A DNA stretch of 64,000 bases from Notolepis coatsorum (taxonomy: Eukaryota; Chordata; Actinopteri; Aulopiformes; Paralepididae). Of this stretch, positions 7,918 through 54,400 are shown piece after piece. Where the stretch lies: contig OZ020585.1 in the NCBI GenBank assembly GCA_963971535.1, positions 23,872,236-23,936,235 of the forward strand. Reading direction: 5' to 3'. The position numbers were made by a program, and so were the translations under genes. The notes under the pieces are model-generated. The model was not told the origin of the DNA, did not search any database, and saw nothing but the letters and a program-made list of their open reading frames with translations. The first letter of the stretch is position 1. Each line of letters begins with the position of its first letter.

Positions 7918-8300
7918 TTTACCTACTTTCTATAGAAGCAGCTGGGAGGTGCGCTGTTTTAAGTGAGCGTGGATTATTGAATTGATTGATTGATTGCAAA
8001 TGTTATTACTGTCCGCCTTGTTTCCAACTGGTTAAGCTTGGCGACTCTTTCGAAGTCGCTTTCTTTCGAAGTTGGTTACGGTTAGAGTTTGTCTTTAGAG
8101 CAGGGGCGATAGACCACCAGCCCTGATTCCAAACTCTAACTTTAACCAACTTCGAAAGAGAGCGACTTCGAAAGAGTCGCCAAGCTTAACCAGTTGGAAA
8201 CAAGGCAGACAGTAATAAAATTAGCAATCAATCAATTCAATAATCCACGCTCACTTAAAACAGCGCACCTCGCAGCTGCTTCTATAGAAAGTAGGTTTAA
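7918..8300. repeat. Large inverted repeat (foldback)
   Basis: The left arm 7918-8090 and right arm 8130-8300 are near-perfect reverse complements. Landmarks are CTACTTTCTATAGAAGCAGC, the GATT repeats and CTTGGCGACTCTTTCGAAG. A short spacer of about 40 nt separates them. The inner arms carry AACTTTAACCAACTTCGAAA, a phrase shared with the foldbacks near 6.4, 44.5 and 47.2 kb. Confidence 0.75.
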
Positions 8301-9153: not shown

Positions 9154-12100
9154 TCAAATAGATTTTCTACGAAGTCTTTGCCTAATTTGAGGGGATTGAT
9201 CAAGATCACTTAAATTGTTAATTTCATGGAGTTCGGTAACTGAGGACCTGGAAGAGTCTACAGTGATTACTCCCGAATCTTCAGAACCAATGGTCATCAC
9301 TGAATTAACTACATGTGTCGGAACTGCAGTCCTCAAGGAATCTCCCCCAAAGTCAACAGATATATTCCCCAGTGCTTTGTCGGTGGTATTGATTGAAAAG
9401 TCGTGCACACGGCTCAAGTAAGCTTCCCTACTAATGTCTTCCTTTTTCTTGAAGAGAATCATGTAGCACTTGGGGCAAAAATGACAGCAAATTATGCCAA
9501 AGTTGGAGACTAAAATGCCACAGGCTTGGACAGCAGCGTGCTTCGGAATTTCAGCGACAAATATAGGGATGAAACAGATCCAGACAAAAAGGTAAACGAT
9601 CATGCTAAAGATGATGTAACCCGTTTCATTGAAGCGATGGGGAACCTTCCTAACGTTGAGGGCAAAAACGAAGCAGATGAAGGCAAGCAGTGCAATGTAG
9701 CAGAGCATGAAGCCAAAGCCCCAATTAGATCCTTCATCACATATTAGCAAAATCTCCATGCTCTGCGCCGAGGTCTGTTTCTCAAGCCTTGGAGAATCAA
9801 AAATTAACCAAAAGAGGCAGATAAGCCCTTGGACAGCTGTACCACATATAATTATGACAGGGGGCTTATAAAACCTTTTCAGCCCATGCTGCTTATTTCT
9901 ATCGATAAGGAATGCAAGGAATGTGCGGAAAGCTTTGACCAAGATGCAAGTGATGCATAGTGTGAAGCCGAGGCCGTACATGGTTTGCCGAGCTCTGCAA
10001 TTGTGATCACTGGGCCTGCCAGCAAACAGGGGCACGGCACCAAAGCTAACGGCAAGCCCAGCGATCATGACAAAGCAGAGTTGCCCACCGGCCACTTTGA
10101 AAACGACACTGTGACGACTGACCACAAAGATGACCAGAATGGAAAATAGCATCAGATAACCGATTCCAGTGAAGAAAAGCATGCAAATGGCAAAGGGCAT
10201 ATCCCATTTAAAGTAATCTTCTGTCCTTGGATCACATTTAGTCCAACCTCTCAAAGACCAAGTTTTGTTGGGGCATTTCAGACAGCTGTGGAGGTCTGTA
10301 AAATAATTAAATAAAATAAATATGTCAGATATCACAGCATATCATGCCAAAAACAGAGAATCACTATCAGATAGAAAAGGTATTGTTGTATACTTACTGG
10401 AAACATTGGTGTAAGTTCCTTCTCCACATTTGGTACAGTTGTAGCAGCATTCTATTGTGGAGATTTTTTTGGCTGTTCCAGGGGGGCAGGACTCTGAGCA
10501 TTTTGATTCAGGGATCTGGCAAAAAAAACAGAAAAAAAACTATGAAAGCCAGCGACATCATGGAATGGATCTAATCATGGAATAGAGGCAGGTGTTCTTC
10601 TTACCGTATTGTTTGGAGTTTCCCAGTCTATCGTCTCTGCACTGATATCCACAACACCTGTCATCTGGTTGTACTTTCCCACAACTTTAAAGTCTCGCTC
10701 ATTTCCCTTCCTTATCCAGTTGATCAAGTCATAGCCGTGTGCAAAGTTGCCACTTTCATCAAAGAAAAACTGCCTCCCGTCAAGAGTAAATGTTGTCTTT
10801 TTCAATTCCTGGAGAAGCTGCAAAGAAATGGTTAAAGATTTTAATGTAATGATCGAGTGTTGTTTCAATGTATTTGTGGAAACCTGAAAGGGATGTGGGA
10901 AAATATGCCAAGAATGTCTCTTACTTGCCATGGGGGAAGGTTTCTCCCTCCTGAACAAACAGACTGATTGCATTTGAGAAGTGATCGTAGGGCATGAGCG
11001 ATTGACCATGTGGCCAGTCTCTCAGAATATGCCATTTCCAGATTAACTGCATGTGTCAGGAAGTCATCATTTGCTTTTTGGGGGTTAGGTATTTTGCAGG
11101 CAACTTTAGATTTAATACTAAGGGAGTCTGGCAAAGGACACTGGGCAGCAGAGTTGCTACTGAGGCACTGTTTGTGTTTCTTCAACTCTGGAGAACATCC
11201 AAATCTTAGATCTTTGTACTCCTCAATGAACTTGTTCACAGCTCCTGCACCAGTTGTTAGATTTGTGAGGAAACGCATCAATCCTGGGTTATGACCTGTG
11301 ATGAAGGTGAACCCAAAGATGTCTCCAATCATATTGATTCCATCCATTGAGGCCAAAGAGCGAGACATGGACCAGGCATCGCTGGCAATCCAGGTCCGAG
11401 AAACTCCTCTCTGGATCATCTCTTGGAACAGCAGCTTCACAAGTTCTTCCTTCAGGATGAGTAAGACCACCTGGGCTTCGGAGGACTCAATGCGGTCTGC
11501 CACCTCTCTGATCAGCTCATCGCTGCTGCTGTGGCCTAGGTAGTGGGGTAGAACCTTCTGAAAGGCGGTGCACATGTGCGCACCTTCAGCGGCTTTCAGA
11601 AAGCTCTGAAGAGCAGCCCTGCCGTAGTCGTCATCCCCCGACACAACGCCCACCCAGTTCCACTCAAAACGTGCCATGAGCTGGATCATGGCATGCGTCT
11701 GGTTCTTATCACTGGGTATAGTGCGCAAGAAGGAGGGGTAACGAACTTTATCATCCAGAGGTTCAGCAGATGATGTCGTGCTTATCTATAAGGGAGGAGG
11801 AAATGTTACAAGGGTAACAGCGCCCAATCTCTGTATTCATACATGTAATGGTCTAAGACAGTCCAAAAATCACGTATCTCCTGAATCCAAGAGTGCGAAG
11901 ACTCTAATTTTTGATGTCATCAGATATAAACTCTCAAGCTGCTCGATAGACAATGAATAGGGAGGTGTAGTGGTTACGTCATTTTCGTTTTCCACCCTCT
12001 GTCCAACGCAATGTATTTCCCCATTGCCCATTTCTAAATCGTCTCATTTAAAACAAATAAAGCATGGACATTTGCATGGTGTACCTTTCTGTGCTGATTC

Positions 12101-15100: not shown

Positions 15101-18100
15101 TTGACCACTCCCCCGATCATTAGACCACGCCCCTTAGGCCACACCCCCTTAGTCCCGAAAAATTTCAAAAACTCGGAAAAGTCCGAAAACTCTGAAAAAT
15201 CCGAAAACTCGGAAAAATCCGAAAAAGTTCAAAAACACAAAAGTCCGAAAAGTCGGAAAAATCCGAAAACTCGGAAAAATCCAAAAACTCGGAAAAGTCC
15301 GAAAACTCTGAAAAATTCGAAAACTCGGAAAAACCAGAACAATTTCAAAAACTGGTAAAAGTCCGAAAAATTTTAAAAACTCGGAAAAGTCCAAACATTT
15401 TTTTAAACTGAGAAATCCGAAAAATTTCAAAAACTCGGAAAGTATCTTTCATTGGTCGATGTTGACCACTCCCCCAATCCTTAGACCACGCCCCCTTAAG
15501 CCACACCCGTGTATCTCTTGTGTAATAGTGTAATAGTGTGTAATAGTGTAATAGTGTGTAATAGTGTAATAGTGTGTAATAGTGTAATAGTGTAATAGTG
15601 TGTAATAGTGTAATAGTGAGTAATAGTGTGTAATAGTGTAATAGTGTAATAGTGTGTAATAGTGTAATAGTGTAATAGTGTAATATTGTGTAATAGTGTA
15701 ATAGTGTGTAATAGTGTAATAGTGTGTAATAGTGTAATAGTGTGTAAGTGTAATAGTGTGTAACAGTGTAATAGTGTGTAATAGTGTAATAGTGTGTAAT
15801 AGTGTAATAGTGTAATAGTGTGTAATAGTGTGTAATAGTGTAATAGTGTGTAATAGTGTAATAGTGTGCTATGTGACTTGCGGGTTGTGTCATTGCACTC
15901 AGTAGGGATATCCTCTTTCATTGGTCTATGTTGACCACTCCCCTGATCCTTAGGCCGCGCCCCCTTTTTGTATCCTTTGAACCGTTTGTCATAGAGACTC
16001 GCGAGAGACCCTCTCCCATTGGCCGGCGGTGCACAGGCGTCACCCACACTTTCACAATTTCCCCCGCGCGGAATTGTCTAGTTGTATTTATAATTTAAAT
16101 CATATAACGTTATTTCGCTCGATATTAAATCACTGTAAATACTAATGTAAATCATTGTTTCGTTGCACATATTGTGTAAAGTTTATAACATTATTGTTTT
16201 TTACATAACGTTAGTAGTAGTTGTTTCTACTATAGAATAAAGCATAATTTAGATTAAAAAAAAGAAAAAGAAAACAAATGTTCTGTGGATCCACAAAAAC
16301 AATCTCCCATTCATTGTCTATGGAGCAGCTCCAGCCTACATCACACGTTTGATTCTTACTTCTCTGGTTTCTGGCTTTAGGAGAGAGTAGCTCATGTTCA
16401 CAAATATTGATTGAACTTTCTTAGGCCATAGAAATAACATTGGCATTCTTCATTTGAGTGGTGATCCCCTTTAAGTACTTTCTATAGTTTTGAATGTCTA
16501 TATCATTTCCTGCTGCTAACACTAGATACTTTGCTCACCTGAGGGACCATGTAGAGACCCAGGAATCTGGCCACAGCGATCGACACCTCAGAGAAACGTG
16601 CCCCAATGATGGCCTTCACTAATGGCTGTTCTGTAAGGTCACATTGGATGGACAGGGTATCATTGGTGGCTAACAGATGTGCAGCGCTCTGGATGGCCTT
16701 GCTGGCATCTGAGCATGTGTCACAGATGACATAGCCAAGACGAACTCCTGGCAGAAAGCCAGAATCATTGATTGTATCAATAGTGTGGATAACAGCCATG
16801 GTCCGCACAAATGAGATCAAATTGAAACTGGATAGAAAAACAAATAATCAATCACTGAAAAAAACATGCATTTGAATTTACTGAAAATTGGAGCATTGAT
16901 ATACTGGGTGTTCAGCAAGGTTTTCTGCATACACATTATTTGATCTTTGGTCACAATTAATGGGCAACTTGGTTTGGGAGGAGCTGCCACCCCCACATGG
17001 AACAATGTATGCTGATTATTAGTATTGTTATTTTTATTCTCTCAGCCAATGACAAAGCAGAATCACAATCAAACCAATATTATTCCTCTAATATATAGAC
17101 TAAAGGCTCTTGTGACGATGCAATCAGTCGTTTTCTTTTACTTATTCAGTGACTGGTTCAGAACTGTTAGTACTACAGTGAAATAAAGCCATGTCATCAT
17201 CGTCATCGTCAGTGGAGCAAATATCACAGATTAATGCCTGGTTATCTGGTTTTAATTAAGCTGTTTGATATCACAGGAATAACATATGGGAATTTGGTAA
17301 GACTGTAACTTGATACAGCCAGTAAATTATAATGGCTAAGTATCACTGAACTAATGAGGAACCAGCTTCTATGTTAACAAATCGTTAACTAAATTCTGAA
17401 TGTTAACTGTCAGATAAATACTGTACGGTCCTATTTCTTCCTATGCATTGTAACATAGTTCCTCATTAGTTCATAGCTCCTTAATCATTATTTGTGCATT
17501 ATCCTCTTTAATATAGGAATAAGATAGACTGCCAAATAGATGAGTCTACTGGTATGTATTATGCATTGCAAAACGTGTTATTGTTATTTTGTTCTTGCAT
17601 GGCTTGAAATGTCATTCCTATTGCATGAGCTCATGAATCATTGCATAAACATGGGTTATATATCATGTAGCTCCGCTCTGCGTCATACTGTAATACTCTT
17701 CCATATCAGTATTAGCACTGAATACATTTTCACATGCACCTTTACACACCTCATCTGCCTGGCCACACCCCCATCCGCTCCTCTACATAAGCAGGGGTGT
17801 GGCCATACTAACAGCTCCTTCTTTGTTTTCACCACGGCAAGTGTCCGTATACACCACTTTGAGACTAATGAAATATTGAAGAAGAGCTGCGTTGACATTG
17901 TTTCTTGTTTTTTCTCTCTCTCACCAATTTAAGAGAAAAAGCTAAGTTATAATGTCTTCTTCGGGGGGTTCGAGCGCTCGCAACGTCACCCTTCACCAGC
18001 TGTTCTCCATTGCCGCCTCCGCCGTGTGTCGTGGGGCTGTGCTGACTCCGCGGTCGTGGCAGTCAGACGCACCCGAGCGGCGTCCGGTGGAGAGTTTGCC

Positions 18101-20612
18101 TCTCCAAGGAGCTGTTGAGCCAAGGCCGTCTCCTGTGAGATGGCCTAGTTCCAGCTCTGGTTCCCCCGCCGGGGGGGGGGTGCGGCCGATAGGCTGACGG
18201 CTCCTCTGGTAGCGGAGGATCTGAGACGCAAGCTCTTCGCCTCTCTGCCATCTCACAGCCTTCTCTGCCTCGGCCGAGGTTTTTTTTGTGGAGGCTGCGA
18301 CATGGTGCACAGCATGCCAGCATACGCCCCTTCCGCCGGGGTGCTGTTTTCAGCAGACCCCTTTGGCGCCTGTCTAGTCCGCAGTGCTCCAGGCTCAGGT
18401 CGAGTGGCCTGTTGCCTGGATTGAGGGATCGACCTCTTTTGGGGGTTGTCTCCCCGGTGTGCTGCCTGGTCCCGCTGTGGGTGTAGCTTCTTGAGTGCTT
18501 CGGGGCGGCGTGCTGTAGGGGGGAAGGGCCTGCTCTTGGATGGGCCCTGTCCGAATACGCTGGCGATGTGGGGGGTGGTGTCACTAGTGACCGCCTGGTG
18601 GCGTCTCGATGCTGCAGCGTCGTTGGCCTCTCCAGGCCCCCTTTTCCGGGGGGGGGGTCCAGTCCCTTCCTGGGTCTGGGTCCTCGTTCTTGCTCCGCTG
18701 CTACGGCCTTGCCATGGGGTTGGGCTTTTGCTCTTGACCCTGTGATGTTAGGGGTTGTAACGGGGGTTTTGTTCCTTTCCGTTTGTTCCCTAGTGGCATG
18801 TGGGTTGCGCGTTTGTGTAGTCGTGGGTAAGTCCCACGGTCTGCTCACCCTGTGCGTTTGAGTTGCTAATCTCCTCTTCGCACAGTCGGATCCGATACCC
18901 TCCCGTCCTCCATTAGGGGGGTCCGGGGGCTCGGGTCCTCCCCGGGTCTGATGGTTGTGGGGGACCTCAGCGGGTACATTTGTCGAGCTCTCGCTCTGCT
19001 TAGCTCCTGTATTACAGTATGACGCAGAGCGGAGCTACACGATATATAATGTACGGTTATGTCTATAACCATAGTTATATGAGTGTAGTGACACTCTGCG
19101 TCGGACTCACTGAGGACCCCGTGGTCTTACCTTTGTGGTGAAAGACTTGGGAAGGAGCTGTTAGTATGGCCACACCCCTGCTTATGTAGAGGAGCGGATG
19201 GGGGTGTGGCCAGGCAGATGGTGTGTAAAGGTGCATGTGAACATTTATTCAGTGCTAATACTGATATGGAAGAGTATTACAGTATGACGCAGAGCGTCAC
19301 TACACTCATATAACTATGGTTATAGACATAACCGTACGTTACATATATGCCTAGAGTCCTAGAGTTAGTGTAGTCTGGCATTAACTTCTCTATTGTAGTA
19401 GAGAATGTTAAAACTTAAAAGCTACTCCAGGAAACAAGGGCTTGATTGAACCTCTAAGGAGACAGGTTTAACCTAACTATTGATCAGTGTTTTGGGTCAA
19501 TGGAGAAGAATGACTACATGGTTAGCACAGGGGTGTTAAACCTGTTTTAGGTTATGGGCCCCATGGAATCCAATTCCAACTCACACCACTATCATATGGC
19601 AGCAGTCTCACAATACCACACACTCAAGTCCCAACGCTCTCAAGTCCCAACACTCTCAGGTGCCAGGTAGTTTTCAGCAATGCATGTGAATCATAAATAA
19701 TAATTAGTGACAACATATAACCAAAACACAAATTATAAAATTTTATTGGACAAAAGACAATAAGTCTGGCTTAGCTACACACTACCAATAGCCTAGATCG
19801 ATATCAAGTAATGTGATAAAATTATCACTCAATTGGCCTATTTTTATAAATTCAGTTTGGCAAAACTACTGGTAGTACAATATTGCATAATAACGCCTAA
19901 TAAGAAAATATAAATTAGAAAGTTGCAGGGGCGTGGCAAGATTCTTGCAGAGGATCATACAAATATATATATTTATATCTCTATCTTAGGTCAGGATTAT
20001 ATGTCCGGTCTCCAGTGGAGTTAAGGTTAGGGTTAAGGTAAGGTTTAAGTTTGTCAAGGATTGTGTTTGGTCATACTTCCTATGGAGTATTTAACGATTT
20101 AAATGTTTTAATTAATTCATGAATTAATTTAATTGAATGAGATAAGATTTTAATTGCTCATTGAAGTAGATGTATTAAAGGCTTTCTTGACTAATGAAGA
20201 GAGCCTTGGACCCCTTTTTTGGGGGAAAAGGGCTTTTCAATGCAATTAACATACATTGTAAAATCATGATTTAGCATCAATATTGGTAGCTAAAATAATC
20301 TAAATGCAGACTAGACCAGAAATAACAAAACAAACTTAAAACTGTGGTCATGACAGTCACTCGGAAGAATGCACTGTGTAGAAAAATGCATTTAGTATGA
20401 ACTTCAAGCACTTACTCTGTACAGTTGAATCTCTCTGGTTGAATTCGTTCGTGCAGGGTCTCCACCTTAGAATGGCAGGGGCTTAGCACTCCGATAATAA
20501 TGTCTCCAGCACTCCTTGCCCCACAAATGGACTCGGAATAATTATCGCAGCACAAGCCCGAGGCCCAAAGGCCAGTCAAAATCAGAGCACACCAATTCAC
20601 CCAAGGGAACAT
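9154..20612 (-). CDS. gprc6a: Family C GPCR, GPRC6A / goldfish 5.24-like amino-acid receptor (complete, six exons)
   Basis: CDS exons on the minus strand: 20612-20416, 16827-16539, 11785-10925, 10817-10605, 10515-10398, 10295-9154. All borders are GT/AG, phases agree, and the sum is 2820 nt (939 aa). The start at 20612 was chosen because it opens a signal peptide (MFPWVNWCALILTGLW); the frame upstream has no ATG. Exons 1-4 form the Venus-flytrap domain, with GDIIIGVLSPCHSKVE, GYVICDTCSDASKA, STTSSAEPLDDK and WNWVGVVSGDDDYGRA. Exon 5 and the start of exon 6 form the nine-cysteine domain (all nine Cys present). Exon 6 carries seven membrane segments from about residue 592 and a Ser-rich tail of about 100 residues, longer than in most OlfC/V2R receptors. 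The residue pattern is closest to GPRC6A and the goldfish 5.24 odorant receptor, which sense basic L-amino acids and signal through Gq. OlfCa-type olfactory use versus broad GPRC6A expression cannot be decided here. Introns 1 and 2 are inflated by transposons. Confidence 0.9.
12456..13108 (-). repeat. Dispersed repeat with exon-like open segment (paralogous to 23780-24700)
   Basis: In receptor intron 2. The reverse complement aligns with 23780-24700 over several blocks: TTATTTCTTTTATTAGC, the tattgcactcc area, and GGCGATCAGATAATTGGATT. Both copies have a short open segment reading NGDQIIGLF, then about ten residues ending in K, immediately followed by GTAAG. This could be an old exon carried by a mobile element or chance. 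No family was recognised. Confidence 0.45.
13147..13652 (+). mobile_element. L2-type LINE, 3' end with internal deletion
   Basis: Translation gives the end of an L2 reverse transcriptase: LLSNVRRIRPFLTKEATQLL and VISRLDYCNALLAGLPA, then after a deletion SVLAPQWWNELPTPVRTAES and FRRRLKTHFFNRYL followed by a stop. The 3' UTR ends with the diagnostic GTCGCTTTGGATAAAAGCGT and CTAAATGACTAAATGTAAA. The element lies in receptor intron 2 on the opposite strand to the gene. Confidence 0.85.
15153..15442 (+). repeat. Minisatellite of GAAAA/TCGGAAAA words
   Basis: About 290 bp of a degenerate ~17-18 bp word of the type TCCGAAAACTCGGAAAAA. The GAAAA strand is purine-rich throughout. Open frames here are artefacts of the repeat. 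Confidence 0.85.
15520..15868 (+). repeat. (TGTAATAG)n-type simple array
   Basis: About 350 bp of alternating GTGTAATA and GTGTGTAATA words. Long open frames on both strands are composed only of this word and are not genes. Confidence 0.9.
16828..17651. other. Receptor intron 1, left part: nothing recognised
   Basis: AT-rich intronic sequence between the exon 2 acceptor and the DIRS-like element. No repeat family or open frame with resemblance was seen. Confidence 0.4.
17652..19345 (+). mobile_element. Internally deleted DIRS-like retrotransposon with ITRs and internal complementary region
   Basis: Inverted terminal repeats of about 140 bp: 17680-17822 (GCGTCATACTGTAATACTC to ACTAACAGCTCCTTC) and 19152-19291 in reverse. 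Next to the right ITR, at 19009-19103, is a composite block. Its first half is the reverse complement of the left outer end (17652-17690, GTAGCTCCGCTCTGCGTC). Its second half is the reverse complement of the right outer end (19286-19340, CTCATATAACTATGGTTATA). This is the internal complementary region expected of DIRS1-type elements. The interior is GC-rich with a gag-like start at 17952 (MSSSGGSSARNVTLHQLFS) but lacks reverse transcriptase and tyrosine recombinase. It lies in receptor intron 1. Confidence 0.7.
19346..20415. other. Receptor intron 1, right part: nothing recognised
   Basis: About 1 kb of AT-rich intron with no identified repeat. A run of short near-repeats (CAAGTCCCAACGCTCTCA, CAAGTCCCAACACTCTCA) lies near 19625. 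Confidence 0.4.
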
Positions 20613-20622
20613 GATGCACAAT

Positions 20623-20994
20623 AGAGAGGGATAGAGAGCCTATAGGAGGAAATTGTGAACCCGCCGGCTCAACTGTCTCGCTTTTATAGACTGCTTCTCT
20701 CTGCCACGCCCCTCAACCTGTGCGTGCAAACTAGGAACTCAGTTTGATGGTAGTAATGTGACACACACACACATGGAATGTGGTGTTTTCCTTCCAAATA
20801 ATCCCTTAGTGATACAGGTTAGATGAGTGAGTTGATTTACTATGGCCAACTCTGTGGGAGAGCAGAATGGGAGCCATTTTATAACAAGCAGATTATTAAA
20901 CTCCATGAAAGGATGAAGATGAATAGCAATAGCTTGTCTTATAAGGACTGCTACCTTATCGTTCCATTGAGCTGTAATTGACACAAGGATTCAA
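20623..20994 (-). promoter_or_regulatory. Promoter and 5' UTR region of the family C receptor
   Basis: On the minus strand a consensus TATA box, TATAAAA (20688-20682), sits 70 bp before the ATG. Transcription should therefore start near 20655. A GC/CACC-type box, GGGGCGTGGC (20712-20703), lies just upstream. A (CA)n run sits near 20762. This exact 372-bp block is duplicated in inverted orientation at 25682-26053. Confidence 0.75.
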
Positions 20995-21559
20995 CATCCC
21001 CGATGACATCACTGGTGGCCATATTCAATAACTCATGCACTCTTAATAACTGTCAAACTAAATTAATGTGTGCAAAACGGTTTAGAGTTTTTGGACGTGT
21101 GTGAGATTGTTTTTTGGTGAATTGTCAGGCCTGCATTGGATGTGCACTGGGATGAAAGAAGGGCAAGCGAGGAATAATTATAATTATAATTAATTATAAT
21201 AATTTAATAAAAATGTATAATACTTATTAAAAACAGTGTAGGCCTAAAGGGGCTGGGCAACAGGAGGAATAGTGCAACTATAAAAGAAGGAAAGGTCACC
21301 AGGTCAGAATACCAGCGTTCTATGCTCTGCTTGGTGCCAGTTCTATTGAAGCCTAATGTATGTAATGTATCTAATGTCACACGTTAGCTACTAACAAATC
21401 GCCGACTGACATCCGAGGTAACAACTTGTTTAAATGTTATGAACGTAGAGATGACAATCCCCTTCAACTCAATGTTGGCCGATCTGAACGCTTTCCACAC
21501 TTGGCACCAACGTGCGTTCATGCGCTACAAAGTGACGTGATGACTCTTCCTTCATTTTT

Positions 21560-25469: not shown

Positions 25470-25612
25470 GCAACCAATGTGTTAATGTACTGTTCCACTT
25501 CTACAGACATCTTCGGCCAGAAGAATCTGCTCCTCAGTTGTTCGACAGTACTCTCAATGCCAAGGTGTCCTAAATCGTTGTGCATGGCCTTCAACACCAT
25601 TTCTCTGAACTC
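25470..25612 (-). pseudogene. Retrotransposon integrase zinc-binding (H2C2) fragment
   Basis: Minus strand: VLKAMHNDLGHLGIESTVEQ followed by LRSRFFWPKMSVEVEQYI, the H-x-GH-x-G start and the FYWP-like core of Ty3/gypsy integrases. Only this segment survives. It abuts a SINE family A fragment and lies outside the LTR element that follows. Confidence 0.7.
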
Positions 25613-25681
25613 TTTCCCGGTTCGATTCCCGCTCCTCCCAGCTGTTATGTTAGTTGTTTCCAGCATTCCTAACTGGAATAA

Positions 25682-26053
25682 TTGAATCCTTGTGTCAATT
25701 ACAGCTAAATGAAACGATAAGGTAGCAGTCCTTATAAGACAAGCTATTGCTATTCATCTTCATCCTTTCATGGAGTTTAATAATCTGCTTGTTATAAAAT
25801 GGCTCCCATTCTGCTCTCCCACAGAGTTGGCCATAGTAAATCAACTCACTCATCTAACCTGTATCACTAAGCGATTATTTGGAAGGAAAACGCCACATTC
25901 CATGTGTGTGTGTGTCACATTACTACCATCAAACTGAGTTCCTAGTTTGCACGCACAGGTTGAGGGGCGTGGCAGAGAGAAGCAGTCTATAAAAGCGAGA
26001 CAGTTGAGACGGCGGGTTCACAATTTCCTCCTATAGGCTCTCTATCCCTCTCT
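25682..26053 (+). promoter_or_regulatory. Inverted duplicate of the receptor promoter (372 bp)
   Basis: Aligns end to end with the reverse complement of 20623-20994. I count about five substitutions over 372 bp and no length change. It includes the TATA box (TATAAAA, 25988-25994), the GGGGCGTGGC box and the (GT)n run. It points to the plus strand but has no receptor exon 1 after it; the homology stops 11 bp before the position of the ATG. Confidence 0.85.
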
Positions 26054-26055
26054 TT

Positions 26056-26343
26056 CTTTACAAAAGTGAAATTTTTACTGGGCACAAAGTACTCCTCAAA
26101 CTTTGTCACTAGCTCAGTCAATGTTATATTTCCCTCATCTATCTGAAAGCTGTTGTAAATGTCCAATGCATCTTCTCCTATTACATGCAAAAATATAGAC
26201 GCTTTTCGGTTCTCATCTCCTCCCCCCGCCCCACTTGCAGCCAAGTAAATATTAAATCTCTGCTTAAATCTCTTCCAATTATCAGCAAACATGCCGGTCC
26301 TCTCGCTAGCAGTGCGCACATGTGTGCCTTTGGAATCCAGCAC
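26056..26343 (-). pseudogene. gag fragment of the LTR retrotransposon
   Basis: Minus-strand reading includes FADNWKRFKQRFNIYLAASG, then KASIFLHVIGEDALDIYNSF and ELVTKFEEYFVPSKN. This is the pattern of Ty3/gypsy-type Gag in fish retroelements (a W..F.QRF start and a KFE.Y..P.KN end). It is cut at 26053 by the promoter copy. No protease or polymerase is present. Confidence 0.75.
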
Positions 26344-26660
26344 ATTCCTTCTTCTTGACGTCGATTCAACTCTGCGTTGCCAGTTCCATTATCTGACACC
26401 ATGTTATGTTAGTTGTTTCCAGTATTCCTAACTAGGAATAAACAGGCTAGGGTTTCTTTACTGGCTTTTATTCACACATTCAAGGCACTCTCCTACTACT
26501 CCGGTCCTCGGTCCGGGTACCACAACAACAGGGCGGAACCAATATTATGTATTATAATAACAACACACCAGCAGCGTGTCGAAGACACTTAACCCCTAAC
26601 TGCTCCCGATGAGCTGGTTGGCACCTTTTGCTTCCGCCATCTGTGTGTGAATGTGTGGGT

Positions 26661-42600: not shown

Positions 42601-43879
42601 GAGGAGGGACATCAAAAACACACAATGGATCATTTGCAATAAATTACTTGTTATTGACAGGCAGCTCGAAGACAAATAATTGAGTCCCTAAGTCAGCATG
42701 TGATGTTATAGTAGGCCTATCTGATAATGAGTTACTATTAAATGTGCATGCTTTTAATTTAACAACCGTCTGGTCAACAGGGGGTTCCTACATTTTCCAT
42801 GTAAAATGTCCATACTTTCCCCCAGAACTTAAAGCCCTGTACCCTGTAGTACCATATAAATGTAGGCTATTTTCATATACATTCTTCAAGAGTTTGATCT
42901 GTAGATTTTGGAACTATCATACAGCATTTTACTTTTTCATTTTTGTTGGCAACCAACGTTATTTGTCAGCACTACTACTATTTCTAATAAACAAACTTGG
43001 CCCTAATGTGGAAACGTGTTATTTGGTAACTGGAATCTGGGCCACACACACACACAATACCTTTGGATAAGCGATGGCTGGAGCCCTCCTCATATACAGT
43101 ACATAATCATCCAGACTGACACCGCGTATGAGGATGGGCATTCCAAGGGAAGTCTTTACGAAAACACCCGCGGGTTTCCCGGCAATGTCATCGTGCGCGA
43201 TAATCCCCCACTTGCTTTGCAGACGTACCCTTTCCTGAAGCTGGAACATCTTCCTGAACTCCACCCGCCCTCCCTTGCGATACTCCGCAACGAGCAGCTC
43301 CCCGAACGTAAGCAAGCGCTCCCCATCAAGAGTGGCCATGGTTGCCATGTACCTGCCCTCAGGGGGCAAAGGGCCATATCCCTGAGCTTCTGAACTATTC
43401 TGCTCCACAGTCGTGTCAAATGCACCATAAAGATGTGTAACATCCTCTTTTGCCATTTGGTATACATATCTTGTGTATGCCTCAGTATGCCCCATGTCAT
43501 ATTGTTCCACTTCTGGTTCTTCTTGGTTCTGCTTTCTCAACTGCTCCACCTCGGGGCTCAAGGAATCCTGGGGCAAAAGGCGAGTGATCCTCTCCAGAGG
43601 GGACAGAGGACGCCTCCTGCCATACAGTGACCCCCCTTTTCCGAGGGTCGGACTAGGGTTCAGGAGCGAGGGGTCTTCATCACCCCCATTCTCATTACCC
43701 CCTTTGGGACCAGCTGACAATGTTCTCACAATCCAGGTCTGTTTAGGTCTATGTATTTGCCTATATCCTTGTTGTGCTCCTAAGCCAGTGCATATTCGCC
43801 CCAGTCTGTGCATAAAGAGAGCCCCTCCGAACGACATGTGTCTATATCCTGTTAAAGTTCTGATTATACTAGTAAACAT
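39637..43879 (-). CDS. trmt61b: TRMT61B, mitochondrial tRNA m1A58 methyltransferase (first four exons; C-terminus not found)
   Basis: Exons on the minus strand: 43879-43061 (273 codons, phase 0), 42598-42496, 41714-41527, 39728-39637; all GT/AG with matching phases. The ATG at 43879 is the first after an in-frame stop and opens an Arg-rich, acid-free leader ([20 protein letters not shown]), fitting a mitochondrial presequence. Exon 1 ends [10 protein letters not shown]. Exon 2 gives the SAM-binding motif [18 protein letters not shown] near residue 290. Exon 3 gives [20 protein letters not shown]. Exon 4 gives [20 protein letters not shown] and ends in VYLA plus a split Asn codon. In humans TRMT61B methylates A58 of mitochondrial tRNAs and sits divergently beside WDR43, as here. 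The last 100-plus residues (ITQV...DWLV...HTAFLV in the family) were not located: a very long intron or a truncated gene are both possible. Confidence 0.88.
40010..41090 (-). mobile_element. LINE in trmt61b intron 3, decayed copy
   Basis: Minus strand: [20 protein letters not shown], then [20 protein letters not shown] (catalytic FADD) and [20 protein letters not shown]. Frames are broken several times. It is an older copy of the family at 26.9 and 49.5 kb, in the same orientation as trmt61b. Confidence 0.8.
41981..42400 (-). repeat. Seven-unit 60-bp tandem array of tRNA-Val-like sequence
   Basis: Exact 60-bp period in trmt61b intron 2. On the minus strand each unit reads TGTAGCTCAATGGGTAGAGC (A box, D arm), TGGCACTAACACTGCCA (perfect 5-bp anticodon stem, seven-base loop CTAACAC giving anticodon AAC) and GGGGTTCCATTCCC (B box, T arm). 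Acceptor strands are missing, so units are head-to-tail tRNA cores rather than tRNA genes. Units at 42061 and 42181 share a variant D arm (CATATTTTAC), implying that a two-unit block was duplicated. Confidence 0.8.
42428..42482 (+). repeat. (TG)n microsatellite next to trmt61b exon 2 donor
   Basis: TGTGTGTCTGTGTGTGTCTG-type run lying 14 to 68 bp downstream (minus-strand sense) of the exon 2 donor. Confidence 0.85.
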
Positions 43880-44321
43880 AAGCAAAGCCTCATACAAGGA
43901 AATATCTGACGTCACAATTCAATCTTCAGCCCTTTTGCAATGTCCCCTGCCCTGAGCCCTGATACAATTCCAAACATATTCTCTGATCTTATGGATCTAG
44001 ATTATTAAGATGTATTCAAAGCCCTTCACGGGTTGCCTGCAAAATATTATGAACCTTGATTTTATGCCACTATTGAGTGATGGCCCGATCGGACAGTAAC
44101 CTACAACATTACAGCTGTCAGTGACATTGACTAAAATATTTGTAATAAGTTGTATATTACACGCGAAATAATACAAAGTGAAGAGGCTGAAAGTGGCGCC
44201 CTGTAAACGCAATTTACTCCTTCAGAAATCGGCTAACATTCTTCTGACACCCGTTTTCTGGCATTTACGGAGGCAGCCATGCTGGATGAAGACACTACGT
44301 CAAGACTGGGCGACGCCGACG
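43880..44321. other. trmt61b 5' flank, left part of the divergent interval
   Basis: About 440 bp upstream of the trmt61b start. No TATA box is evident. This should contain the trmt61b promoter, but no element can be assigned by eye. Confidence 0.35.
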
Positions 44322-51112: not shown

Positions 51113-51454
51113 ATTAAGGCCAATCAGGGCGCGCAAACCGAACGCGGAAGGACAACTGCCTTGGGTAAAGTATTCACGCAGCCGGTCCTGAGGACCTGCA
51201 GCGGCTCTGCAGCTGGATACTATTGGTTGCTGTTGTTGCACTTTACCGTAAACGTGTTCCGAACACGCCCATTGTCTAACAGCAGCCAATGGGGGAAGAC
51301 GTAAATGAAGCCGACGACGTGCCACGGCGCCAGTCCGTGGAGGAGGAGGACCACGTGGTTTCCCCACACACACACGTCACGCACACAGACAGAGACCACG
51401 TGGTGTTCCCACACGCTCACACAGACCGAGACTGAAGGAGCACTAGCTTCACAA

Positions 51455-54400
51455 ATGGCGGCCGACGGTGGCAGCAGCTCTACGCTGGTGGGGCTACCCT
51501 GCGTTTTCTCACCCAAATCACGACAGTACCTCGCGTTGTGTGCCCAGGACGGCAGGCTTCGCATTTGGAACACGGACAATAAAACACTTCACCAAGAATA
51601 CGTGCCTTCTGCCCATTTGAGTGCCACTTGCACCTGCATAGCATGGGGACCATGCCGGACAGTCAAGGTAATAACGTGGGGATGATGTGGAAGAGAAGCT
51701 AACGTTAGCTTTAGGCCTCCGGCGCGACCCTGGTGTGAAAACGGTATCTAACCCGTGTCTACGGTTGATCGAGAAAGGTGTCAGTCTCATTTTACTTGCA
51801 TTGGCGATCTGTGTCGCCGTTCTTGTCCGTTCACCGTGATGTTAACGTGATAGAGGAGGGGTGTTCGTGTGATAGCTCGCCTCCCAACATTAACTGCGCA
51901 GGACGACGCACATGTTTGTGGCACATGGTGGTCGTTGGACAAATTGTGCCACGATTTGTCTTTTTAGTTCATCATTCCATAGCGAATTTAACTTTAAAGG
52001 TTACTTCGTATAGCTGACTTACCACAACTACGGTCTTACCCGTCATTTTGTAGTGTTTGAAGTTAAAATGTCGTTCGTGATGAGTTCCATCTAGCTAAGC
52101 GTGTTAGCCCTAGCAGCCATTATGACACTTTGAGTTGACGTTCAATAAAGTTTAGTCTCTTGGTCATGTTGTTACCCTGATTCATGATGTAACGTTAAAC
52201 GTGTCTCTCGATCATCTAGCTAATTGGCCGTCTCCAAAACACGTTAGATAATACTAATAATACACAAAGTAATCTACACAATAAACCGGGGAAAATAAAG
52301 GGGAGAAAGCAAGGTGGTCTCATACTTCAATACAGTTTTGTCTCGGTCATGTTACCCTGATCATGTAAACGTGTCGGTGTCTGTCTAGAATGATCATCTA
52401 GCTAATTGTTGTGTGTGACTGTGTATCATAAACAGAAAGCAATAACTATCCTGACATGCTATCTTAATGTAGCTATATCTCATTGCCATGCTATAGCTAG
52501 CAGTTTGGGCGACCACCTCTATTCTTCTTACTCTATTAACTTGTCAAATGTGTCGCATCATGTGTTAATTTAATTTCACATTTGTTAGCGGTTAATCTTA
52601 TTGGGAATGGGTCTCGATTTAAATCTTAGCTGTGTTTAATTAAAGTATAAGCTGTTGACTCATTTAGGCCCCACAGGGGACAGCCATCTCGTCATCAGTT
52701 CATTTGTGTAATGGGTCCTGATTTCATGTTATAATACTGATTTCTTAAGATTTATATAGCGCCATGGGTCTCATGAAAGGCGCTAATATAAATCTAATAA
52801 ATCATTATGTTGGGTTGCGAGCGCTGCTCTATAATGATGGCAGCCCGTGTTATATGTATAAAAGACAAACTGGTCAGAATTTGCCTTGCATTTGGTTCTT
52901 GCACCTCAAACCTCCCAAGCATGATTATTGATCATCATTGTCAATCGCTGGAACGCCTAACCCCATGTCAGACGTGAAACCGTGTGGACTGGTCAACAAT
53001 GTATTGTGTGTGTGATGTTCCAGGAGGGACCTCAGAGGAAGAAGCGGAAATCGGAGGCAGCAGGGCAGGTGGAGGAGAAGGCAGACCTGCTGGCAATGGG
53101 CACAGCAGCCGGCAGTGTCCTCATCTACAGCACAGTGAAGGGGGCACTGCACTGCACACTAGTGAGTTTGTTATTATCCTCTGCATGTTTTATTAAATGG
53201 TAAATGGTGCATTTATATAGCAGCTTTTATCCAAAGCGCTTTACAATTTGTTCCTCACATTTTACCCATTCACTCACACATTAACACACAGATGGCAGAG
53301 GCAACCATGCAAGGTGCCAACCTGCTCATCGGGAGCGGTTATGGGTGAAGTGTCTTGCTCAAGGACACTTCGACACGCTGCCCAGGAGGAGCAGGAATCA
53401 AACTGGGAACCTTTCGATTACCAGACGACTGCTCTTCCTCCCAAGCCACTGTCGCCCAATATTGGGGATTATATTAGGGATGCACAGATACCCATACTGG
53501 CATTGCATACATGGCTGATACCAGGGTAAAATAAGGCATCAGCATGGGTGGATTTTCCCATTACTTAAAACCAATACCAACATACCAAGGCTGGTAGAAA
53601 TCAAAGCAGACATACTCCGTTTTCTGTGTTTGTTACATTGAAGCATGTTAACTTTGGTCTCGAAATGGAGTGAATTCAAATAATCGTTGGTACTAGCAGT
53701 TCTAGGAAGGTTACTGATTACTATGTGTGAAGTGGCCTCCAGGTCAAAATATTGGTTCTGACAAATTACATGCTAGTGCCACCAACTGATCACCAACATA
53801 CCAAAATTATGACTACGATACCTGCCTAAACTGTCTTGATACTGAAACGATATGGCAAAAACGCAAAACATCAGGAAAAGTAATAATAAGGAATAATCTA
53901 TTAGATGACAGCCCTGACATGACACACATAAATGGATTTATACATGGACAATGGAGGATAGGTATGTACACTAAGTTTGAGCTCTTTTATTAATTGTACA
54001 ATTGATTAACTCCTTATGCTGAGGGCACATTAGCATAAAACGCTTGATGATTGCATACCCAAAGTAATTTGTGATTTTCTACTTGAACCACTTGTAGCAC
54101 ATGCTTGAGTCTGGTCTCTTTTTAAAGGAAACCTTCTGAACTTTCTTCCAGAACAGGAGAATAATCGCTCTTGAGTGCTAATGTAATACAGTTGGCGGTT
54201 TGAACACAATGAAATAAAAGTTACTCATGTTTTGTTTACTTGTTGCTAGATGCCTGTTTTTGAGTTCCAGCTGAGAGGTAGGAGCTGGAAAACATAATGG
54301 TTCCAGAAGTCTTATCTACAGTACACGTCCAAAGTTTAACAATCCCACGGAAAATGAGTGTTTTACACAACTTTTTCTAATGGCATGTTTATGCGTTTTT

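What the first reader, a model, noticed from the sequence alone, without database searches (positions are those of the whole stretch)
25643..26567. Receptor promoter captured inside a small LTR retrotransposon
An LTR element with 5-bp duplication CCAGC, a 166-bp LTR, a primer binding site and gag has lost its pol region. In its place is an inverted copy of the family C receptor promoter (25682-26053 = reverse complement of 20623-20994, about five differences in 372 bp, TATA box intact). Junctions are sharp: one falls inside the left LTR, the other at gag codon sequence, and the copy stops 11 bp before the receptor ATG. A near-identical, intact promoter is now aimed at new sequence only 5 kb from its source. 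Possible routes are transduction by template switching during reverse transcription, or repair using the nearby promoter as template.
Basis: partly seen in the sequence, partly recalled or inferred. Interest (0 to 1): 0.85.

Follow-up and report, generated by a model that had tools for sequence, protein, structure and literature searches.

The report
Receptor promoter pasted into retrotransposon scar
A 372-letter copy of a nearby receptor gene's promoter was pasted backwards into a young, gutted retrotransposon, most likely by faulty DNA repair; this is a neat but ordinary kind of mutation, with no sign yet that the copy does anything.

Summary
Window 25682-26053 is the reverse complement of 20623-20994, 367 of 372 bases identical. 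Its proximal 274 bp were found only at these two places in the 3.42-Gb assembly. The block sits in an LTR retrotransposon with a 5-bp target duplication. Against a 5,055-bp relative, 4,355 bp are missing between LTR position 40 and mid-gag, replaced by the block plus up to 7 filler bases.

The receptor locus is the donor: a dispersed repeat half inside the block runs on past the junction there.

Best explanation: repair in place inside a young integrated element, copying a template 4.7 kb away. Transduction by reverse transcription is disfavoured: the 3' LTR is a 39-bp stub, no second chimera was found, and the donor is next door. Element and copy look similarly young (2 private substitutions in 539 bp; 1 to 4 in 372 bp).

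Downstream on the copy's strand, 30 kb gave no Pfam match above cut-off; the first recognised coding frame, WDR43-like, lies 25 kb away. The receptor is family C; an olfactory role is unproven. A new example of a known kind.

The parts
20623..20994 (-). Donor: 372-bp promoter region of the family C receptor gene on the minus strand (TATAAA at 20688; ATG at 20612)
20899..21112 (.). Dispersed palindromic (MITE-like, label recalled) repeat that forms the distal end of the donor promoter and continues past the copied end
   Evidence: 6 of 39 repeat matches compared, L003-L008; longest matches 84-87% identical; extent approximate
20412..20612 (-). Inferred exon 1 of the receptor: open frame from ATG, with a GTAAGT donor-like site at its end
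   Evidence: no Pfam match on its own
16503..16820 (-). Frame holding a receptor exon, start of ANF_receptor domain
   Evidence: E 1.8e-15
10865..11728 (-). Frame holding a receptor exon, ANF_receptor domain
9154..10335 (-). Frame holding a receptor exon, 7tm_3 domain
25638..25642 (.). Left target-site duplication CCAGC
25643..25681 (-). 39-bp stub of the 3' LTR of the element (minus-strand orientation), terminal part of the LTR
25682..26053 (+). Inverted copy of the receptor promoter block; TATAAA at 25988 points rightward
26054..26060 (.). Seven bases matching neither donor nor gag relatives in register; partly gag-like if a gap is allowed
26061..26401 (-). gag remnant and leader, with a primer-binding-site-like start beside the LTR (tRNA match not tested); lacks about 142-154 bp around 26288-26296
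26402..26567 (-). 5' LTR of the element, 166 bp
26568..26572 (.). Right target-site duplication CCAGC

Best explanation
A Ty3/gypsy-like LTR element, about 5 kb in its relatives, integrated in a dispersed repeat (SINE-like, label recalled) about 5 kb upstream of a family C receptor gene. Soon afterwards a double-strand break or fork collapse inside the integrated element removed about 4.35 kb, from 40 bp inside one LTR to mid-gag. The gap was filled by copying 372 bp of the receptor's promoter DNA from 4.7 kb away, in inverted orientation. It was sealed with a blunt join on one side and up to 7 filler bases on the other, most simply by end joining. The result is a templated-insertion repair scar that happens to carry a complete core promoter; it is most likely without function. 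Shown: anatomy, donor direction, the unique part found at only two places, youth. Inferred: the break, the pathway, one step rather than two, and lack of function. The confidence is for templated repair in place, whatever the pathway.
For: Both LTR outer ends and the TSD are intact while the interior is replaced. The relative at C1:162878371-162883425 is 5,055 bp, with 4,355 bp between the two junction points. The element interrupts a dispersed repeat whose two sides lie together in L059 and L060. The block's left end lies inside another dispersed repeat that runs on to about 21112 at the donor, so the receptor locus is the source. Only two places with the unique part were found genome-wide. 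The left junction shares no base; the right has up to 7 added bases. Class 2 templated insertions are described with microdeletion, microhomology and non-templated additions (PMC5110952, passages). Similar youth: 2 private substitutions in 539 bp of element (11 LTRs and 19 gag copies compared); of 5 copy-donor differences, 25707 is copy-derived and 20964 donor-derived.
Against: No reads were seen, so assembly error is not formally excluded, though five differences and family-typical flanks speak against it. Deletion and insertion could be two events: another copy (C29, L045) has a plain internal deletion that also starts inside the LTR. The right junction is ambiguous: a gapped alignment to L046 makes part of the 'filler' gag-like, so end joining is less firmly supported there. 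The private-change count used 11 of 39 other LTR matches (two of the 11, L038 and L041, are the two LTRs of one element) and 19 of 39 other scored gag copies, ignored indels, and counts only changes seen in none of the relatives.
Confidence: 0.85

Rival explanations
1. Retroviral-style transduction: the promoter was joined to the element by template switching during reverse transcription, and the chimera then integrated.
For: The TSD and LTR ends show real integration. Element and copy are of similar age. LTR elements can pick up host sequence (established knowledge).
Against: The 3' LTR keeps only its terminal 39 bp, after the AATAAA at LTR position 96; standard strand transfers would restore a full LTR. 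The block covers upstream promoter DNA, not expected in mRNA. No second copy was found. Reinsertion within 5 kb of the donor would be improbable.
Confidence: 0.03
2. Replication-based template switching (MMBIR/FoSTeS): a stalled fork in the element jumped to the opposite-strand template 4.7 kb away, copied 372 bp and jumped back past 4.35 kb. This is a pathway variant inside the best explanation, so its odds overlap with the 0.85.
For: Inverted orientation and local donor fit the four-point template-switch picture (PMC7954356, passages). The right junction could hide a short shared stretch if aligned with a gap.
Against: No microhomology at the left junction; MMBIR-linked templated insertions are described as flanked by microhomology and within 100 bp of their template (PMC8421209, passages).
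Confidence: 0.25
3. Two steps: a plain internal deletion of the element first, then an unrelated templated insertion at or near the deletion junction.
For: Internally deleted copies exist: the C29 locus L045 retains LTR and gag with a large deletion and no insert. The window element has a further gag deletion.
Against: Both block ends coincide with the two deletion ends apart from 7 bp, so one event is simpler.
Confidence: 0.12
4. Assembly or haplotype artefact.
For: No read data were available here.
Against: Five differences between copies, LTR and gag flanks typical of the family, and a 5-bp TSD.
Confidence: 0.03

Closest known systems
Class 2 templated sequence insertions (TSIPs) and other break-repair patches
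   Same: A copied segment from elsewhere fills a break; loss of local sequence; blunt or filler junctions; no TSD or poly(A) of its own
   Different: The donor is 4.7 kb away on the same chromosome, DNA upstream of a gene, and inverted; class 2 TSIPs in the paper (passages read) come from distant regions and are linked to RNA
Template-switch / MMBIR inverted templated insertions
   Same: Inverted copy of a nearby template, original retained
   Different: 372 bp at 4.7 kb rather than events within 100 bp; no microhomology at the left junction (PMC8421209 and PMC7954356, passages)
Transduction/transduplication by LTR retrotransposons
   Same: Host sequence inside an LTR element flanked by a TSD
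   Different: No mobile chimera found, 3' LTR reduced to a stub, single locus, promoter not transcript
Ty3/gypsy-type LTR retrotransposons (that the host is a fish is my guess, not tested)
   Same: 5-bp TSD, TG..CA LTRs, a relative with RNase H before integrase
   Different: This copy has lost its pol region and part of gag and cannot be autonomous

Membership tests
Templated-insertion repair scar | Inserted segment is a copy of sequence still present elsewhere | tested here: met
Templated-insertion repair scar | Junctions without a transposition signature of the insert itself, with end-joining features | tested here: met
   left junction blunt, right up to 7 added bases (ambiguous with a gap); the TSD belongs to the LTR element, not to the block
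Templated-insertion repair scar | Break and repair event itself | not testable with these tools
   Fossil event; needs population or sister-species alleles
MMBIR/FoSTeS templated insertion | Microhomology at both switch points | tested here: not met
   left junction 0 bp; the right junction is ambiguous
LTR-retrotransposon transduction | Both LTRs complete and alike after integration | tested here: not met
   3' LTR is a 39-bp stub
LTR-retrotransposon transduction | Chimera present at more than one locus | tested here: not met
   the unique part was found at the donor and the copy only, in one assembly
Ty3/gypsy-like LTR element | RNase H precedes integrase in pol | tested here: met
   on one relative at C1: RT_RNaseH E 8.7e-27; rve E 1.3e-05 but 25.8 bits, below its cut-off of 32.6. 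The order is shared with other LTR groups (recalled)
Ty3/gypsy-like LTR element | Phylogenetic placement of RT | not tested
   RT region not examined
Family C GPCR (donor gene) | ANF_receptor ligand domain plus 7tm_3 | tested here: met
   E 2.3e-28 and 5.3e-61; calcium-sensing and T1R receptors
Olfactory V2R/OlfC receptor | Member of a large olfactory cluster or olfactory expression | tested here: inconclusive
   other genomic matches 21-56% identical over partial stretches; this gene is not among the matches clustered at C1:307 Mb; no expression data

The most novel reading that the evidence does not exclude
The captured promoter is active and, in cells that express the receptor, drives a new plus-strand transcript from near 26020. 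The capture took place during repair of the element's own integration intermediate, which would explain why element and copy are of about equal age.
Probability: 0.08. Interest if true: 0.5.

Novelty: new member of a known kind. Interest (0 to 1): 0.3.

Why it matters
It is an unusually readable scar: donor, recipient element, junctions and relative ages can be read from one window and its genome. It shows how DNA repair can duplicate a whole core promoter to a new site without any transposon carrying it. That is a way to seed new transcription starts, although here no recognised gene lies close in its path.

Tried and rejected
Whole block as a repeat: rejected; two full copies among 41 matches, the other 39 confined to its first ~104 bases (40 of 453 candidates scored), and two matches for the proximal part. 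Polarising all five differences: only the two in the repeat part could be polarised, since the proximal part has no other relative. The gag remnant against Pfam: only two weak matches below cut-off (DUF1028, DUF2996).

Plus-strand genes downstream. Long 5,000-residue frames found nothing and proved insensitive: the 51305 WD40 frame detected was missed. I therefore repeated the scan in 3-kb chunks over 26061-56062 in three frames (30 chunks). Four weak matches appeared, each below its curated cut-off: DUF4905, ALKBH8_N, WDR90_beta-prop_4th and WD40_WDHD1_1st, the last two on one stretch of the WDR43-like frame. So even a real exon scores below cut-off in this scan, and small exons without a Pfam domain would be missed.

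Papers: eight searches. Their listings, capped at 3 to 15 rows each, showed no paper on a receptor promoter copied into an LTR element; only these listings and passages of three papers were seen.

Full report
Observation. The arms 20623-20994 and 25682-26053 form an inverted pair of 372 bp with 367 of 372 positions identical; the differences lie at 25707, 25712, 25872, 25892 and 26009. It is the longest of the 16 inverted pairs of 100 bp or more listed for the 64-kb window (ungapped). The proximal 274 bp (25780-26053) match only these two places in the 3.42-Gb assembly (2 of 2 candidates scored). The full-block search returned 41 matches: two full-length, and 39 confined to about the first 104 bases at 80-91% identity (40 of 453 candidates scored, so the repeat count is a lower bound).

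Donor. At the receptor the ~94-bp repeat part continues beyond the copied end, to about 21112, as part of a palindromic dispersed repeat (6 repeat copies compared), whereas at the copy it stops at the LTR stub. The receptor locus is therefore the donor. The receptor frames match ANF_receptor and 7tm_3 and are closest among solved structures to calcium-sensing and T1R taste receptors or calcium-sensing receptors. In one search the 7TM frame had 48 matches, itself included. The best-scoring other is at C46 (39% identity); a gene at C8:144.28 Mb matches in two pieces (48% and 56%); the nearest on the same contig is 2.4 Mb away. Many other matches cluster at C1:307 Mb. So 'family C receptor' is supported, but 'olfactory' is not shown.

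Recipient. The right LTR 26402-26567 and a 39-bp left stub 25643-25681 bear the same outer end and are flanked by CCAGC on both sides. The LTR has 39 other matches (40 of 166 candidates scored). A relative on C1 spans 5,055 bp with 180-bp LTRs, its own 5-bp duplication (CTGGG), and pol with RNase H (RT_RNaseH, E 8.7e-27) followed by an integrase-core match below its curated cut-off (rve, E 1.3e-05). Relative to it, the window copy lacks 4,355 bp between LTR position 40 and gag, and about 142 bp (154 bp against L013) within gag. That last stretch is bridged in 39 of 39 other scored copies, each of which matches the query in two separated pieces (40 of 76 candidates scored, the window copy included). 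The element interrupts a dispersed repeat: in L059 and L060 the two flanks lie together.

Junctions. Left: LTR sequence up to ...GGAATAA, then donor TTGAATCC..., with no shared base. Right: donor sequence ends ...CCCTCTCT, then seven bases TTCTTTA, then gag CAAAAGTG.... Of 19 gag relatives looked at, 18 were displayed (L016 was missed by the exact motif): 17 have TATCTCT just before CAAAAG and L025 has one base changed. A further copy, L046, has TATCTTT and aligns with the window from 26055 on if one gap is allowed. So the filler is seven bases in register, but may be fewer.

Age. Against 11 LTRs (two of them from one element) the right LTR has 1 private substitution in 166 and the stub 1 in 39; against 19 gag copies, 0 in 228 and 0 in 106 for gag and leader; together 2 in 539, indels not counted. 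The copy carries between 1 and 4 of the five copy-donor differences: 25707 is copy-derived (repeat column C in 5 of 6, T in 1) and 20964 donor-derived (A in 6 of 6). Element and copy look similarly young; the numbers are too small to order them.

Mechanism. The intact TSD and outer LTR ends place integration before or at the replacement. In element orientation the surviving 3' LTR piece starts at LTR position 128, after the AATAAA at 96. Normal reverse transcription would have rebuilt a whole LTR, so a pre-made chimera is very unlikely. The block includes DNA upstream of the TATA box, which the receptor mRNA should lack. Repair inside the integrated element, copying the nearby promoter and closing most simply by end joining, explains all of this. 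Published class 2 templated insertions show microdeletion, microhomology and added bases (PMC5110952, passages). MMBIR-type insertions are described as flanked by microhomology (PMC8421209, passages), which is absent at the left junction. The exact pathway cannot be settled from one scar.

Function. The copy keeps TATAAA at 25988, pointing right. No Pfam match above its cut-off was found on the plus strand over 26061-56062 in three frames, but that scan scored even the WDR43-like exon below cut-off, so its sensitivity is limited. The nearest recognised plus-strand coding frame is at 51305-51685, which matches residues 2-72 of WD repeat-containing protein 43 (PDB 7mq8, E 6.7e-24), 25 kb away; a frame with the TR61B FKBP-like domain at 43019-43915 is on the other strand. 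Function is therefore unlikely, though RNA data are lacking.

Verdict. The striking reading (promoter transduced by a retrotransposon) is disfavoured, and the ordinary one (templated repair) is favoured.

Noticed in passing
window 25482-25615: A 134-bp fragment of another high-copy repeat (97-98% to L051 and L052; pol-like by eye, not tested) ends abruptly at the SINE-like fragment just left of the LTR; on its left another high-copy repeat ends at a TTAA, as piggyBac-like elements do (label recalled). The site has had more than one break.
   Followed up: partly
window 20899-21112: The distal part of the receptor's upstream region is a dispersed palindromic MITE-like repeat.
   Followed up: partly
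window 43019-43915 (-) and 51305-51685 (+): A TRMT61B-like frame (TR61B FKBP-like domain) and a WDR43-like N-terminal frame lie head to head; that the two are neighbours in other vertebrates is recalled, not tested.
   Followed up: partly
L045 (G000:C29:45465200-45468700): Another copy of the LTR family with a plain internal deletion that starts inside its LTR, without any insert there.
   Followed up: partly
window 7985-8236: Hairpin: two 120-bp arms, 90% complementary, 12 bp apart.
   Followed up: no
window 15345-16047: Long low-complexity frames rich in TLLHYYT-like repeats.
   Followed up: no
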